Part shown: one piece after another, positions 13,686 to 18,665 of the stretch
Layout of the letters: the number at the start of each line of letters is the position of its first letter
Position numbering within the stretch: position 1 is the first letter of the stretch
Origin: Rickettsiales bacterium
Lineage (GTDB): Bacteria > Pseudomonadota > Alphaproteobacteria > G027485855
Assembly (NCBI GenBank): GCA_027485855.1
Contig: JAIXQD010000030.1
Location: 186,001-250,000 of the forward strand
Direction: 5' to 3'
Length of the DNA: 64,000 bases
Program-made: the position numbers and the translations under genes
The notes under the pieces: model-generated
What the model was told of the DNA's origin: nothing
Database searches by the model: none
What the model saw: the letters and a program-made list of their open reading frames with translations, nothing else

Positions 13686-14669
13686 TCAGAGAAGATTTTC
13701 AAAATTATATTCGCTGAAGGCAGGCGGGGGTGTTTGCTGTGGGGGGGTATTCAGGCGGGTGGCCCAGCGCAGTTTAGCCGAGCGGGCGCGGGGGTTACGA
13801 TCCCGCTCGGCATCACTTGCGATAACAGGTTTACGCTGTACCAGTTTAAAGCTCGCCGCCTGCCTTTGGGGGGATAAGGGCAAATGCCGCGAGACGCTCT
13901 CCTCATCACCCGAGCGATGACGTAGGAAATCTTTCACAATTCTATCTTCAAGCGAATGGAACGATACCACCGCCAAGCGGCCATCGGCATTCAGCAATTC
14001 TTCGGCGGCCATGAGGCCGGCCATCAGCTCGGGCAGTTCGTCATTAACGGCCAGGCGCAAGGCTTGAAAGCTGCGGGTGGCGGGGTCAATGCCGCTATTA
14101 TCAGCGCGCACGACGCTGCGGATAATTTCGGCGAGTTCGCTGGTGCGCTGAAATTTTTGCGTGAGGCGCTTTTGCACAATGGCGCGGGCAATGGCGCGGC
14201 TGCGGCGCTCTTCGCCAAGGCGATAAATGAGATTAGCCAGCTTATCTTCGGCGGCGCTGTTGACAATATCGGCTGCACTGCGGCCTTCGCTGCTCATGCG
14301 CATATCAAGCGGGCCATCCGCCCGAAAAGAAAAACCGCGCTCTGCATCATCAAGCTGCGGCGACGAAACACCCACATCCAGCACTACGCCATCAACCGCT
14401 TGCACGGCAAAGGGTGCCAAAAGACGCGGCATTTCGCTAAAGCGGCCATGAATGAGGGTGAGGCGCTGTTTATATTTTTGTGCCAGCTCTTGTCCGGCGG
14501 CAATGGCGCTGGGGTCACGGTCGATGGCGTAAACCTTAGTATCGGGCGTGGCTAAAATGGCCGCGCTATAACCGCCAAGGCCAAAAGTGCCATCGACATA
14601 AATGCCACCGGGTTTTACCGCGAGCGCTTCGAGGGCTTCTTGCAACAGAACTGGGATATGTGTGCTCAT
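13686..14669 (-). CDS. rsmH: 16S rRNA (cytosine-1402-N4)-methyltransferase RsmH
   Basis: SAM-dependent methyltransferase (formerly MraW) modifying C1402 of 16S rRNA. It opens HIPVLLQEALEALAVKPGG with the SAM loop DGTFGLGGYSAAIL. Further motifs are VDGVVLDVGVSSPQLDDAER, RGFSFRADGPLDMRM, FQALRLAVNDEL and VVSFHSLEDRIVKDFLR. It has 327 residues. It overlaps the mraZ stop by ATGA and lies 17 nt upstream of ftsL. Confidence 0.97.
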   Translation of the reverse strand: MSTHIPVLLQEALEALAVKPGGIYVDGTFGLGGYSAAILATPDTKVYAIDRDPSAIAAGQELAQKYKQRLTLIHGRFSEMPRLLAPFAVQAVDGVVLDVGVSSPQLDDAERGFSFRADGPLDMRMSSEGRSAADIVNSAAEDKLANLIYRLGEERRSRAIARAIVQKRLTQKFQRTSELAEIIRSVVRADNSGIDPATRSFQALRLAVNDELPELMAGLMAAEELLNADGRLAVVSFHSLEDRIVKDFLRHRSGDEESVSRHLPLSPQRQAASFKLVQRKPVIASDAERDRNPRARSAKLRWATRLNTPPQQTPPPAFSEYNFENLL

Positions 14670-15157
14670 AGGGCCCCGCTATTTTGTTGTTGTTGTTGTT
14701 GTTGGGCTAAGGCAAAAATACGCGACAAAGAAACATCTTGCGCTTTGGCGGCCGCGCGTTGTTGCTCGGTATAGGCCGCAAGTTTAGCGGGCTGCCATAA
14801 TTGAAAAGTTTTGCGGCGGCCAAAGAAGGCCACTTCCTCGTTAATGCCAACAGCGCGGCTGAGGGCTTCGGGCAGGCAGACGCGGCCTTCGCCATCAAAG
14901 GATAGCTCAACGGCGCTGCCAAAAATGGTGCTTTCAATCAGCTCATAGGTGCTGGCGGGTAAATCAAGCTTATCAAGGCTGGCCGAAAGCTCGGCTAAGT
15001 GCGCGACTGCACAACCTTCAAGCGCATCATGATTAAGGGCACGAAACACCACAATGCCGCTGGCATCAGCCGGCAGGGCCGCACGAAAGCTGGCAGGCAC
15101 GGAGACCCGTCCCTTGCGGTCGATGCGGTTGATGATGGTGGATAAAAATTGTGCCAA
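14666..15157 (-). CDS. mraZ: Transcriptional regulator MraZ, probable TTG start
   Basis: DNA-binding regulator of the dcw operon, made of two AbrB-like halves. The family core begins FLSTIINRIDRKGRVSVPAS and the second half has VELSFDGEGRVCLPEAL. No ATG lies close to the core. A TTG at 15157 gives MAQFLSTIINR and 163 residues, near family length. The next in-frame ATG (15259) would add 34 residues encoded by repeated leader DNA that look unrelated to MraZ. The C-terminus carries seven glutamines from a (TTG)n tract at about 14684-14704. The stop overlaps rsmH by ATGA. The start call is an inference. Confidence 0.88.
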   Translation of the reverse strand: MAQFLSTIINRIDRKGRVSVPASFRAALPADASGIVVFRALNHDALEGCAVAHLAELSASLDKLDLPASTYELIESTIFGSAVELSFDGEGRVCLPEALSRAVGINEEVAFFGRRKTFQLWQPAKLAAYTEQQRAAAKAQDVSLSRIFALAQQQQQQQNSGAL

Positions 15158-15180
15158 GTGTTTAAAGCCCGCGCCAGAGT

Positions 15181-15236
15181 GTTTAGAAAACTGTGTGTTT
15201 AGAAAACTGTGTTGTTCAAAAAACCCAGAATGTTGT
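15181..15236. repeat. Short tandem duplications in the mraZ leader
   Basis: A 16-bp unit (GTTTAGAAAACTGTGT) occurs twice without change at 15181-15196 and 15197-15212. It is followed by a looser duplication of a TTGTTCAAAAAA segment. This is the region between the proposed MraZ operator and the proposed TTG start, so it would be part of the 5' untranslated leader. Confidence 0.75.
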
Positions 15237-15327
15237 TCAAAAAAACATGCCCACATCACCCGACTAAAATGTTAAGCAAACGAAATAAGTTTAATTTGGC
15301 TTAACATGGTCCCATTTGGTACCTTGG

Positions 15328-15679: not shown

Positions 15680-16582
15680 CTATAAATACAGGCTTTCTTG
15701 CATGGTTGTGGCCAGCCTTGGTGGTGCGGTGGGTTTTGGCTGGCTCAGCTCTTGCCATTGGCTGGCAGGCAGTCTTGCGCGGCTATACCAATTGGGGCCT
15801 TGTGCTTTAAGCAGCACATCTTTGCCGCGATTTTCTACATCAACAGCGGCAAGCCTTTGCCGCATTTCGCTGGGGTGCAGCTCGCGCATTTTTTGGGCAT
15901 ATTTATCGGAGCATTCGTCTAAGGCGCTTTTTGCGGCTAAAGAAACCTCAAGCGGGTCGCTATGGTTTGTCACCAAAGCGCGCAGCGTATCGACAAACAT
16001 ATAATGGCTTTTGCTTTTTGGCGGTTTTTCTTCAAAGCCGACCGTATGAATCTGGCTGGCTTGTGCGCCCATGATGTTGCCCCATTGTGCCAGGGTAATT
16101 GGGCCATCAAACAAGCCTGGGTCGATAACCATGGTTTGCACCGTGCCATCCATCTGTTGCACAGGCACAGTGACGGCCACATGCCACCACCAGGTGGTTT
16201 GATCGGCAGACAGAAATTGCGGTTGCAGCAGATTGCCGTGTTCATCTTCAAAGGCCCAGGCGCGCCCTGGTTCTATGCCCATGCGGCGCAAATCTTCGCC
16301 CATGAGTTGGGCGCGGGCGTAGCATAAATCGTAAATATAGGCGAATTTATATTCGGCTTTATTGGCCAGAACATCAAAAGCCGCCAAAGCTTCAGCTTCG
16401 CTTAGGGCTTTGGGTGTTTGTGCCGGCGGCGGCGGGGTTTGGTCTAACTGTGGCTCTCGGGGGCCGCCTTTAAGGATATATAAATCGCCATTCATCGAGC
16501 TGCCGCTGAGGCTGATGGGCTCAGTCAAAAACTTAGCCATAGACTTAAAAAAATCGAGGATAGGGGCAGCTTTCGTGGCCAT
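15680..16582 (-). CDS. Protein-glutamine-deamidase-like protein with Cys-His-Asp triad
   Basis: A 300-residue protein without a signal peptide. After a proline-rich linker (about 48-58) it shows the papain/transglutaminase-like order I associate with the bacterial protein-glutaminase family: a cysteine motif YDLCYARAQLMGEDLRRMGI (Cys87), a histidine strand TTWWWHVAVTVP (His134) and an aspartate strand MVIDPGLFDGPITLAQW (Asp154). Members deamidate protein glutamines or belong to related uncharacterised groups; the substrate here is unknown. The C-terminal third (to about 300) has no match I recognise. Its ATG overlaps the stop of the 97-residue gene upstream by one base, so the two are probably co-translated. 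Family assignment is from memory of the motif pattern. Confidence 0.6.
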   Translation of the reverse strand: MATKAAPILDFFKSMAKFLTEPISLSGSSMNGDLYILKGGPREPQLDQTPPPPAQTPKALSEAEALAAFDVLANKAEYKFAYIYDLCYARAQLMGEDLRRMGIEPGRAWAFEDEHGNLLQPQFLSADQTTWWWHVAVTVPVQQMDGTVQTMVIDPGLFDGPITLAQWGNIMGAQASQIHTVGFEEKPPKSKSHYMFVDTLRALVTNHSDPLEVSLAAKSALDECSDKYAQKMRELHPSEMRQRLAAVDVENRGKDVLLKAQGPNWYSRARLPASQWQELSQPKPTAPPRLATTMQESLYL

Positions 16583-16875
16583 CAGAGTTTTAACTCGGCT
16601 GCTTGAATGGCAAGCTCGGGCGTGTGGCTAACCAGCAGTGGCTGTGTTGTTTGTTCGATTAAAGCGCGCAGCTGCGCTTCTGCTTCGGGCGTTAGCGTTT
16701 TGGCCAAGCTGAAATAAGCCGGATGCTCATGAAAGCTGACTTGCCAATTTTGCGCATCGGCCCTGATGCGGCGCACATGCAGCACAGTTTGGCGAATGTC
16801 GCCGCGAGCTTCGTCGCGCTTTTCGTCGCGAGTTTCGTCGCGCTTTTCATCGCGCTTTATGGGGTCGGTATCCAT
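16582..16875 (-). CDS. Small protein with Lys-Arg-Asp-Glu repeats, coupled to the deamidase-like gene
   Basis: A 97-residue protein of unknown function. Residues 7-25 are a tandem tetrapeptide repeat (KRDEKRDETRDEKRDE) encoded by 12-bp repeats at about 16805-16857. The remainder is a small alpha/beta-looking domain (TVLHVRRIRADAQNWQVSFH, then a helix TPEAEAQLRALIEQ). TAGGG precedes the ATG. The stop overlaps the start of the next gene (TGATG), which suggests a functional pair. The repeat looks like a local slippage product. No family recognised. Confidence 0.6.
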   Translation of the reverse strand: MDTDPIKRDEKRDETRDEKRDEARGDIRQTVLHVRRIRADAQNWQVSFHEHPAYFSLAKTLTPEAEAQLRALIEQTTQPLLVSHTPELAIQAAELKL

Positions 16876-16961
16876 AGACCCTAGATTGTCATTTCGTGCT
16901 TAAAACAAGCTTAATTTGCCTGTCTAGCTAGTTATGGCTGGCCGTGGGAGGGGGGGTAAAA

Positions 16962-17316
16962 TGCCAGATGGTCTATAAGCCGGGTTCTGTTATGGCTGTT
17001 GCCAGCCACCAATGACCATTCATCTACGCTGTTTGTTGCCAAACAGCTTAAGCGCGCAACCCGAGCGCGAGGCAGGCACCCCATTTGCGCTCCTATTTGC
17101 ACTTGCTGCCGGTGCAGGTTGTCATGCCAGCGCTGTTACCAGCCCTGCGGTGCGCTCTTACCGCACCTTTGCACCCTTACCCATATAAAATGGGCGGTTC
17201 TGTTTCTGTGACCCTGTTGCGTGGGTCGCCCCAGGCGGACATTATCCGCCACCGTTGCCTGTGCAGCCCGGACTTTCCTCGGAGCTTGCGCCCCGCGGCC
17301 ATCCAACCATCTGGCT
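16962..17316 (-). ncRNA. rnpB: RNase P RNA (class A)
   Basis: Catalytic RNA for tRNA 5' maturation. On the minus strand the conserved core GAGGAAAGTCCGGGC is present near the 5' end and the universal 3' block ACAGAACCCGGCTTATAGAC near the 3' end. The ends pair as helix P1 (GCCAGATGGT near 17315 with ACCATCTGGC near 16963). The length of about 355 nt and internal GGTAAGGGTGCAAAGGTGCG text are normal. The end positions are set by P1 and may be a few bases off. Frames open across this region are not genes. Confidence 0.96.
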
Positions 17317-17516: not shown

Positions 17517-18665
17517 ATGAAAAGATTTTTAATAGCGGCCGCCGCACTTTTGACTTTGGCTCAGCCCCTTTTAACCTCGCCCGCTTTTGCCCAAGATGGC
17601 AGCGCTTGGTATGAACGCGATTTCTCGACCAGACTTTACGGCCCCTATGTGAGCGGCGCTGTCGGCGGCAACTGGCCAACAAATGGCCATGCGCAAATTT
17701 TGGGTATCGACAATAAAGTGCGCTATGAGCGTCCGGCTTTGGCGGGCGCTTTGGCCGCTGGTTGGAGCTGGGGCGATGGTTTGCGCACCGAACTTGAATA
17801 TAGCTATCGCAGCAACGAGGTGAATAAAGTCACCGGCGCCAGCTCGGCTGGTGGTGCGGGCGAAATAACCACCAATGCAGTATTGGCCAATCTTATTTGG
17901 GATTTTGACGATTTAGGCTGGGTGATTGTGCCTTATGCCGGTGGTGGTATTGGTTATTCTTGGGTCAATGTTGATAATATCCGCACCATCAACGGCACTA
18001 GCTTTAACAAAGATCAGGGCCGCTTTGCCTATCAATGGATTTTTGGGGTGCAATATCCGTTTAATCCGAATGTGCGCGCCTTTACCGATTATCGTTATTT
18101 CCACACCGAAGAGGTGGACGAAATCACCACAACTTTGGGCTCTAACTTTAGAGGCCGCCTGAATAATCGGCATCACACCTTTATGGCTGGTTTGCGTTAT
18201 CAGTGGGGCGATGTTGTGCCTATGGCCGCGCCCGCGCCAGAGCCTGTTGCGGCACCCATTATGCCAGCGCAGCCTTTAGCCGCAGCCCCACCGCCCATGC
18301 CCGCACCAGCGCCAGCACGCGTGATGCCGGCTGTGCCCAATGTCTATATGGTGTTCTTTGATTTTGATAGATCAGTGCTCACCCCAGAAGCCAAGCGTAT
18401 TTTGCAGCAAGTGGCGCAAGATATGCGCATTGGCCGTGGCGCACAAATCCATGTGGTGGGTCACACTGACCGCGCCGGCAGCCCACAATATAATATGCGC
18501 TTAAGCCAGCGTCGCGCCAGCGTGGTGCGCGATGAGTTGGTGCGTTTGGGCGTGCCCAGCAACGATGTCAGCACGCAAAGCGTTGGTGAGAGCCAGCCCC
18601 GCGTGCCCACGGCCGATGGTATTCGTGAGGCGCAAAACCGCCGCGCTGAAATCATCTTCCGCTAG
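17517..18665 (+). CDS. OmpA-family outer membrane protein
   Basis: An eight-stranded-barrel porin with a peptidoglycan-binding C-terminal domain. It has a signal peptide (MKRFLIAAAALLTLAQPLL, cleavage after AFA at about residue 25), then a barrel of about 200 residues rich in alternating aromatics (RFAYQWIFGVQYPFNPNVRA). An alanine/proline linker (about 240-275) follows, and an OmpA domain (YMVFFDFDRSVLTPEAKRIL, HVVGHTDRAGSPQYNMRLSQ, QNRRAEIIFR). It has 382 residues. An AAGGAGA site precedes the ATG. It stands alone, with a terminator directly after it. A lipoprotein Pal is excluded by the barrel and the absence of a lipobox. Confidence 0.93.
   Translation: MKRFLIAAAALLTLAQPLLTSPAFAQDGSAWYERDFSTRLYGPYVSGAVGGNWPTNGHAQILGIDNKVRYERPALAGALAAGWSWGDGLRTELEYSYRSNEVNKVTGASSAGGAGEITTNAVLANLIWDFDDLGWVIVPYAGGGIGYSWVNVDNIRTINGTSFNKDQGRFAYQWIFGVQYPFNPNVRAFTDYRYFHTEEVDEITTTLGSNFRGRLNNRHHTFMAGLRYQWGDVVPMAAPAPEPVAAPIMPAQPLAAAPPPMPAPAPARVMPAVPNVYMVFFDFDRSVLTPEAKRILQQVAQDMRIGRGAQIHVVGHTDRAGSPQYNMRLSQRRASVVRDELVRLGVPSNDVSTQSVGESQPRVPTADGIREAQNRRAEIIFR

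What the first reader, a model, noticed from the sequence alone, without database searches (positions are those of the whole stretch)
15680..16875. Protein-glutamine-deamidase-like enzyme coupled to a small repeat protein
The 300-residue protein has an ordered Cys-His-Asp set (C87, H134, D154) like bacterial protein glutaminases but has no signal peptide, so it would act inside the cell or be exported by another route. The overlapping 97-residue gene could be an inhibitor, immunity partner or substrate. A cytosolic deamidase with a dedicated partner would be unusual for a housekeeping region.
Basis: partly seen in the sequence, partly recalled or inferred. Interest (0 to 1): 0.52.

Follow-up and report, generated by a model that had tools for sequence, protein, structure and literature searches.

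The report
Protein deamidase with detached inhibitor gene
This is a bacterial enzyme that probably turns glutamines in proteins into glutamates, encoded next to a small protein that looks like the enzyme's own built-in safety catch made as a separate gene; the same pair turns up in several distant groups of bacteria.

Summary
The 300-residue protein is a protein-glutaminase (PF18626, E 1.3e-19); C87, H134 and D154 match the known triad and are invariant in 38 of 38 aligned relatives. It has no signal peptide. A 97-residue gene overlaps its start by one base. Stand-alone copies lie beside the enzyme gene in 25 of 52 non-Chryseobacterium loci and in 49 of 49 Chryseobacterium loci; 7 of 52 carry two copies fused to the enzyme. 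No separate hit in 9764 open frames lay away from an enzyme gene. Most pairs share the same export type. Best reading: a zymogen split into two genes, the partner plugging the active site in trans, as Spi does for SpeB. The host genome has DotI, DotH and DotG genes of a type IVB secretion system, so the enzyme may be an exported effector; that step is inferred. Inhibition has not been shown experimentally.

The parts
15680..16582 (-). protein-glutaminase (protein-glutamine deamidase), 300 aa, no signal peptide
   Evidence: PF18626 E 1.3e-19; NF040782 E 5e-13, below its cut-off; predicted fold matches 2ksv/3a54/2zk9
16073..16378 (-). catalytic domain (residues 69-170)
   Evidence: PF18626 match
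16322..16324 (-). codon of Cys87, catalytic Cys
   Evidence: aligned with the Cys of the CYARA motif of 2zk9; invariant in 38 of 38
16181..16183 (-). codon of His134, catalytic His
16121..16123 (-). codon of Asp154, catalytic Asp
16582..16875 (-). partner protein, 97 aa: stand-alone homologue of the protein-glutaminase pro-region, putative inhibitor
16585..16761 (-). pro-region-like domain (residues 39-97 of the partner)
   Evidence: segment used in HMM and hhalign comparisons
16711..16725 (-). predicted active-site plug loop H51-P52-A53-Y54-F55, equivalent of the Ala47-Gln48 stretch of the known pro-region
   Evidence: alignment A7, loop statistics; numbering
16799..16858 (-). 12-base tandem repeat coding for the charged N-terminal extension of the partner; not in relatives
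16582..16582 (-). one-base overlap (TGATG) between partner stop and enzyme start, suggesting translational coupling

Best explanation
The two genes make a split zymogen. The 300-residue enzyme is a protein-glutamine deamidase (Cys87-His134-Asp154). It lacks the covalent pro-region that keeps the Chryseobacterium enzyme silent until cleaved. Instead, the overlapping upstream gene supplies that pro-region as a separate protein. The partner is predicted to lay its loop H51-P52-A53-Y54-F55 over the active site as a substrate mimic that cannot be deamidated, so the enzyme is inactive while both are together in the cell. Leaving the cell, or losing the partner, would free the enzyme. Shown here: enzyme family and triad, homology of the partner family to the pro-region at profile level, gene adjacency in distant lineages, and matched presence or absence of signal peptides in most pairs. 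Inferred: binding, inhibition, the plug loop, release by export, and the export route (a type IVB Dot/Icm system whose DotI, DotH and DotG genes lie on the same contig).
For: Enzyme. Partner: an HMM from four stand-alone partners (the window and two alphaproteobacterial MAGs) searched against 5809 ORFs gave seven further hits at E<0.01; all seven are the ORF directly next to a protein-glutaminase gene. On 18 loci not used to build it it found an adjacent partner in 12. Overall 25 of 52 distinct non-Chryseobacterium loci have a separate adjacent partner, 7 of 52 have two copies fused to the enzyme, and no separate hit below 0.05 lay elsewhere in 9764 ORFs. In 49 of 49 Chryseobacterium loci a lipoprotein-like ORF with the same domain lies near the enzyme gene (48 directly downstream; L087 upstream). 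Homology to the pro-region: hhalign of the stand-alone partners against the Chryseobacterium pro-region scores 27.8, with 0 of 100 column shuffles reaching it (max 17.4); with 11 partners 30.1, 0 of 100 (max 16.2). The 11-partner HMM hits pro-enzymes directly, e.g. L090 E 0.0017. Fold: the best Foldseek match of the 97-aa model among 350,542 chains is pro-protein-glutaminase 3a56, aligned to its pro-region residues 22-93. Loop: in 27 non-Chryseobacterium partners the Ala47 position is A15/S6/P3/D3 and never Q. Export type: neither protein has a signal-like stretch in 15 of 15 alphaproteobacterial loci; both have one in L024, L027, L028, L036, L038 and L095. Enzyme and partner distances correlate, r 0.67, 0 of 2000 permutations. 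Export: DotI, DotH and DotG on the same contig. Other members are fused to DUF4280 or WXG100.
Against: No inhibition or binding has been measured. HMMs of the Chryseobacterium pro-region, or of all fused pro-regions, do not list the window's own partner even at E 100; the link runs through intermediate sequences. The fold match is weak (E 0.014), and VIA-align puts it level with unrelated OB folds (Z 8.5). The model is modest (pLDDT 67.9), and 15 of the 34 rows of its alignment were Chryseobacterium pro-regions or lipoproteins, so the fold match is not independent. 20 of 52 loci show no partner. The distance correlation was not controlled for species phylogeny. Co-occurrence of PF18626 with DotH across Alphaproteobacteria (3 of 4 enzyme genomes against 12 of 381, p 1.9e-4; 0.0036 without the window) is confounded by lineage, and G050, the relative with several copies, has no DotH hit.
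Confidence: 0.72

Rival explanations
1. The partner is chiefly a folding or secretion chaperone that hands the enzyme to a type IVB (Dot/Icm) system; inhibition is secondary or absent.
For: The host genome has DotI/DotH/DotG genes; a published classification of papain-like enzymes puts PF18626 near Dot/Icm genes (PMC10318531, passage seen); the one-base overlap suggests coupled synthesis. Pro-regions of secreted enzymes often also help folding (general knowledge).
Against: The same partner family goes with enzymes that have signal-like N-termini in the Bdellovibrionota-type loci, and is lipoprotein-like in Chryseobacterium, where no type IVB chaperone is needed. G050, with two such partners, has no DotH hit.
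Confidence: 0.15
2. The partner is a dedicated substrate that the enzyme deamidates (a regulatory pair).
For: Tight linkage; the partner contains Gln residues.
Against: At the loop that aligns with Ala47-Gln48 of the known pro-region, 27 non-Chryseobacterium partners have A/S/P/D then G/A/S, never Gln at the first position.
Confidence: 0.05
3. Ordinary intracellular deamidase with an unrelated small neighbour; adjacency is incidental in the window.
For: The direct similarity of the window partner to pro-regions is below detection.
Against: The same small family sits beside the enzyme in 25 of 52 non-Chryseobacterium loci, upstream or downstream, and nowhere else in the ORFs searched.
Confidence: 0.05

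Closest known systems
Protein-glutaminase of Chryseobacterium proteolyticum (EC 3.5.1.44; 2zk9, 2ksv, pro-forms 3a54/3a56; PF18626)
   Same: Catalytic fold, Cys-His-Asp triad, CYARA and IDP motifs; a pro-region of the same domain family
   Different: There the pro-region is covalent, secreted with a signal peptide and removed for activation (PMC12791059, passages seen; PMC9396377, passages seen). Here it is a separate gene and neither protein has a signal peptide.
SpeB-Spi of Streptococcus pyogenes (C10 protease and adjacent propeptide-analogue inhibitor)
   Same: Cysteine enzyme gene juxtaposed to a gene for a propeptide-like inhibitor (PMC2873492, passages seen)
   Different: Different enzyme family and activity (protease, not deamidase); the inhibitor sequences were not compared here
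Effector-immunity pairs of polymorphic toxins (T6SS/T7SS/eCIS)
   Same: Small gene next to an enzyme, export type matched in most pairs; relatives of the enzyme fused to DUF4280 or WXG100
   Different: No VipB in the host genome; killing and protection not tested

Membership tests
Protein-glutaminase (PF18626 Gln_deamidase_2) | domain score above the curated cut-off | tested here: met
   70.8 bits, cut-off 25
Protein-glutaminase (PF18626 Gln_deamidase_2) | ordered Cys-His-Asp triad in conserved motifs | tested here: met
   (38 of 38)
Protein-glutaminase (PF18626 Gln_deamidase_2) | papain/transglutaminase-like fold | tested here: met
   model pLDDT 72.9; Foldseek E 1.8e-8 to 2ksv
Protein-glutaminase (PF18626 Gln_deamidase_2) | deamidation of protein-bound Gln | not testable with these tools
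   needs an ammonia-release or mass-spectrometry assay
NCBIfam NF040782 (secreted Chryseobacterium-type protein-glutamine glutaminase) | equivalog cut-off | tested here: not met
   48.9 bits, cut-off 250
Protein-glutaminase pro-region (stand-alone) | sequence-profile relation to the pro-region | tested here: met
   hhalign score 27.8 against shuffled max 17.4, and HMM hits through intermediates; not by direct HMM on the window partner
Protein-glutaminase pro-region (stand-alone) | fold of the pro-region | tested here: inconclusive
   top Foldseek match 3a56 but E 0.014; Z 8.5 tied with OB folds; the model's alignment contained pro-regions
Protein-glutaminase pro-region (stand-alone) | inhibition of the mature enzyme | not testable with these tools
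   needs purified proteins
Dot/Icm (T4BSS) effector | a type IVB system in the genome | tested here: met
   DotI, DotH and DotG genes in G000:C18; other components not searched
Dot/Icm (T4BSS) effector | translocation | not testable with these tools
   needs a translocation reporter
T6SS effector-immunity pair | T6SS sheath gene (VipB) in the genome | tested here: not met
   no match in the own genome

The most novel reading that the evidence does not exclude
Protein-glutaminases are, across several bacterial phyla, exported protein-deamidating weapons whose zymogen pro-region has become a separate immunity protein. The window shows a cytosolic version shipped by a Dot/Icm system, and the industrial Chryseobacterium enzyme itself has an overlooked lipoprotein immunity gene beside it.
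Probability: 0.4. Interest if true: 0.75.

Novelty: new variant of a known kind. Interest (0 to 1): 0.6.

Why it matters
It would give protein-glutaminases, known mainly as food-industry enzymes, a biological context: an exported deamidase with a dedicated inhibitor. It would show how a pro-region and an immunity protein can be the same module, once fused and once free. It also makes a direct prediction for the enzyme type already in commercial use: the small lipoprotein-like gene near it in 49 of 49 Chryseobacterium loci examined should inhibit it.

Tried and rejected
Tried without result: P0001 in plasmids and phages (no match); viral contigs with A5 (34 pattern hits, none confirmed); a single-sequence scan of genome contigs (none); PDB profile search with the three-row partner alignment (none); PHROGs, PADLOC, NCBIfam and Pfam for the partner: nothing in Pfam and only weak unrelated matches elsewhere (SixA 0.027, phrog_10127 0.012, ZorB 0.012), rejected. 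VipB and VirB4 in the own genome: none. No excess of sigma-70-like promoters. G+C of the pair (about 0.51-0.53) is slightly below that of the dcw genes beside it and gives no clear sign of recent import. C-termini of the alphaproteobacterial enzymes were printed to look for a type IVB signal; no common motif was evident, so no claim is made.

Rejected readings: 'repeat protein' (the repeat is private to the window partner); substrate (no Gln at the plug position); T6SS effector.

The T4BSS co-occurrence was looked at also within the order of a Micavibrio genome and gives no contrast there: DotH in 132 of 142 genomes, and in 21 of the 22 with PF18626. An earlier count said 13 of 18 new loci; the correct count is 12 of 18.

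Full report
WHAT IS THERE. On the minus strand, between rnpB (16960-17314) and mraZ (14666-15259), lie two genes. The first, 16582-16875, codes for 97 residues; the second, 15680-16582, for 300. They share one base, TGATG, which suggests coupled translation (inference). The own genome (G000, 2.37 Mb, 34 contigs, completeness 97.84, contamination 9.54) has one PF18626 match only.

THE ENZYME. PF18626 (Gln_deamidase_2) matches residues 69-170 with 70.8 bits against a cut-off of 25. phmmer against PDB sequences returns five distinct sequences, all protein-glutaminases. In an alignment of 38 sequences C87, A89, R90, A91, H134, A136, D154, P155 and W167 are invariant. The AlphaFold2 model (pLDDT 72.9) finds protein-glutaminases in ranks 1 to 6 (E 1.8e-8 to 3.3e-7), followed by the N-terminal glutamine amidohydrolase NTAQ1. 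The distances of the triad atoms in the model were not measured.

THE PARTNER. Pfam, with E up to 10, shows nothing for the 97-residue protein. Relatives gave the clue. In G050 (the same contig as L020, Rhodospirillales MAG SZUA-500) two 128-residue ORFs stand directly upstream of enzyme copies. In L021 (Rhodospirillales MAG palsa_926) a 77-residue ORF overlaps the end of the enzyme gene. An HMM from the relevant 58-60-residue segments of these and of the window partner was run on 5809 six-frame ORFs of the window and 80 loci. Besides its four seeds it found seven hits below E 0.01: L053, L027, L028, L036, L095, L024 and L038. All seven are the ORF next to the enzyme gene. Adding these seven gave an HMM that reaches Chryseobacterium sequences: the pro-enzymes themselves (for example L090, E 0.0017) and ORFs just downstream of the enzyme (for example L075, E 2.4e-5).

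COUNTS. Of 111 relatives found, 80 were kept by the tool: 49 Chryseobacterium and 31 others. One search examined 103 loci: the window, these 80, 20, L010 and L015. Two (L110, L121) repeat L021 and L022 and were dropped, leaving 101: 49 Chryseobacterium and 52 others. Of the 52, 25 have a separate partner next to the enzyme at a domain E below 0.05, 7 have two pro-region-like repeats fused in front of the enzyme (L029, L030, L031, L032, L033, L035, L046; seen), and 20 have neither detected. L051, counted among the 20, has a downstream ORF with the loop pattern by eye but E 8.3. None of the separate hits below 0.05 in 9764 ORFs lay away from an enzyme gene. Of the 18 loci that newly brought in, 12 have a partner (L109, L111-L120, L122) and 6 do not (L123-L128); some of these are close relatives of one another, and one search gave loci for 20 of its 24 matches. 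In 49 of 49 Chryseobacterium loci an ORF with a lipoprotein-like start and the same domain pattern lies near the enzyme gene: 48 directly downstream, one (L087) upstream. These were recognised by motif and by eye; many of them score above E 1 individually with the HMM, but a set of 10 of them taken as a group reaches hhalign 27.4 against a shuffled maximum of 16.5.

RELATION TO THE PRO-REGION. hhalign of the four stand-alone partners against 26 Chryseobacterium pro-regions: probability 78, score 27.8, 0 of 100 column shuffles as high (max 17.4). With 11 partners: 87, score 30.1, 0 of 100 (max 16.2). Eleven partners against the second repeat of the fused type: 93, score 34.9, 0 of 100 (max 11.9). 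First and second repeats of the fused type match each other at probability 87.6. Against this: HMMs made only from fused or Chryseobacterium pro-regions do not list the window partner at E up to 100. The predicted fold of the window partner is three strands, a helix and two strands, pLDDT 67.9. Foldseek ranks pro-protein-glutaminase 3a56 first, with 3a56_B and 3a54 third and fourth, at E 0.014-0.042. VIA-align gives Z 8.5, level with OB-fold domains of tRNA synthetases, and aligns the model with residues 22-93 of the pro-enzyme. The alignment used for the model contained 11 Chryseobacterium pro-regions and 4 lipoprotein rows among 34, so this is support, not independent proof.

THE PLUG LOOP. 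Chain numbering puts Tyr50 at 'YEIKP', so the 'AQF' before it (seen in the near-identical L056) is Ala47-Gln48-Phe49. PDB entry 3a54 is titled as the A47Q1 mutant of the pro-enzyme. The paper on these structures was not available; its title, seen as a reference, speaks of pro forms converted into an enzyme-substrate complex. That Ala47-Gln48 occupies the active site is recalled, not read. In alignment A7 this pair corresponds to P52-A53 of the window partner. Over 27 non-Chryseobacterium partners the column before it is His in 23, the Ala47 column A 15, S 6, P 3, D 3, and the next column G 15, A 11, S 1. Gln at the first position is absent. In one fused protein (L046, Agrobacterium) the second repeat has Gln there; this is a single case and unexplained.

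SAME EXPORT TYPE. With a simple hydrophobicity rule neither protein has a signal-like stretch in 15 of 15 alphaproteobacterial loci (window, L020, L021, L109, L111-L120, L122; the highest values are 1.32 for an enzyme and 1.97 for a partner; the values of the signal-bearing set below start at 2.28). Both have one in L024, L027, L028, L036, L038 and L095. In L034 and L044 only the partner passes; the script limited the choice of enzyme start there. L053 has a DUF4280 N-terminus on the enzyme and a hydrophobic stretch only on the partner. In L043 the partner is cut by the contig end. Enzyme and partner distances correlate (25 pairs r 0.67; 17 alphaproteobacterial pairs r 0.64; 0 of 2000 permutations each; L043 and L044 were left out), without control for species phylogeny.

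EXPORT ROUTE. Own genome: no VipB, no VirB4, DotH/IcmK at G000:C18:27459-28166 (E 3.7e-74). Beside it are DotI/IcmL (NCBIfam 180.9 bits, cut-off 175) and a DotG/IcmE C-terminal match (146 bits, cut-off 750). The pair lies on the same contig about 172 kb away. In 385 alphaproteobacterial genomes PF18626 is in 4 and DotH in 15; three have both. Fisher p 1.9e-4, or 0.0036 without the window's genome. Two of the three are weak PF18626 matches, and lineage is not controlled. In the order of G746, 21 of 22 genomes with the enzyme have DotH, but so do 132 of 142 in all. A published survey mentions Dot/Icm genes near PF18626 (PMC10318531, passage seen). Export by this system is a reasonable inference, no more.

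WHAT IS KNOWN. The covalent pro-region of the Chryseobacterium enzyme is removed on activation (PMC12791059, passages seen). An adjacent propeptide-analogue inhibitor is known for the protease SpeB (Spi) (PMC2873492, passages seen). In the held library no paper on a stand-alone protein-glutaminase inhibitor or immunity gene was found with the searches; subscription journals and preprints are mostly not in that library, so this is no proof of absence. I therefore rate it a new variant of a known kind: it works like SpeB-Spi and is not a member of it.

VERDICT. Observation confirmed; the inhibitor reading is well supported by comparative evidence but untested; the effector reading is plausible.

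Noticed in passing
L014:9793-12414 (same contig as L020): One MAG (SZUA-500) has two small partner genes and three protein-glutaminase domains in a row; the first enzyme copy is frameshifted and the last two domains are in one open frame that runs to the contig end.
   Followed up: partly
49 Chryseobacterium loci among L041-L099: A lipoprotein-like gene with the same domain as the pro-region lies near the protein-glutaminase gene in all 49 loci examined.
   Followed up: partly
L053:4563-5516; L023:4425-5522: Protein-glutaminase domains fused to DUF4280 (Saprospiraceae) and to WXG100 (Herpetosiphon), suggesting payloads of secretion systems.
   Followed up: partly
L031, L032, L033, L035 (Reyranella and relatives): Two pro-region-like repeats plus enzyme followed by about 700 residues without a Pfam match, ending in apparent membrane helices.
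   Followed up: no
L046:4671-4847: Gln instead of Ala at the position equivalent to Ala47 of the pro-region: a natural counterpart of the A47Q mutant of 3a54.
   Followed up: no
window 17517-18665: Protein with an OmpA domain and Surface_Ag_2/OMP_b-brl barrel matches.
   Followed up: no
L132:8332-11611 (own genome, C18): DotI-DotH-DotG gene row of a type IVB secretion system in this deep alphaproteobacterial lineage.
   Followed up: partly
L112:2227-2711: Two tandem partner genes upstream of one large protein-glutaminase ORF.
   Followed up: no
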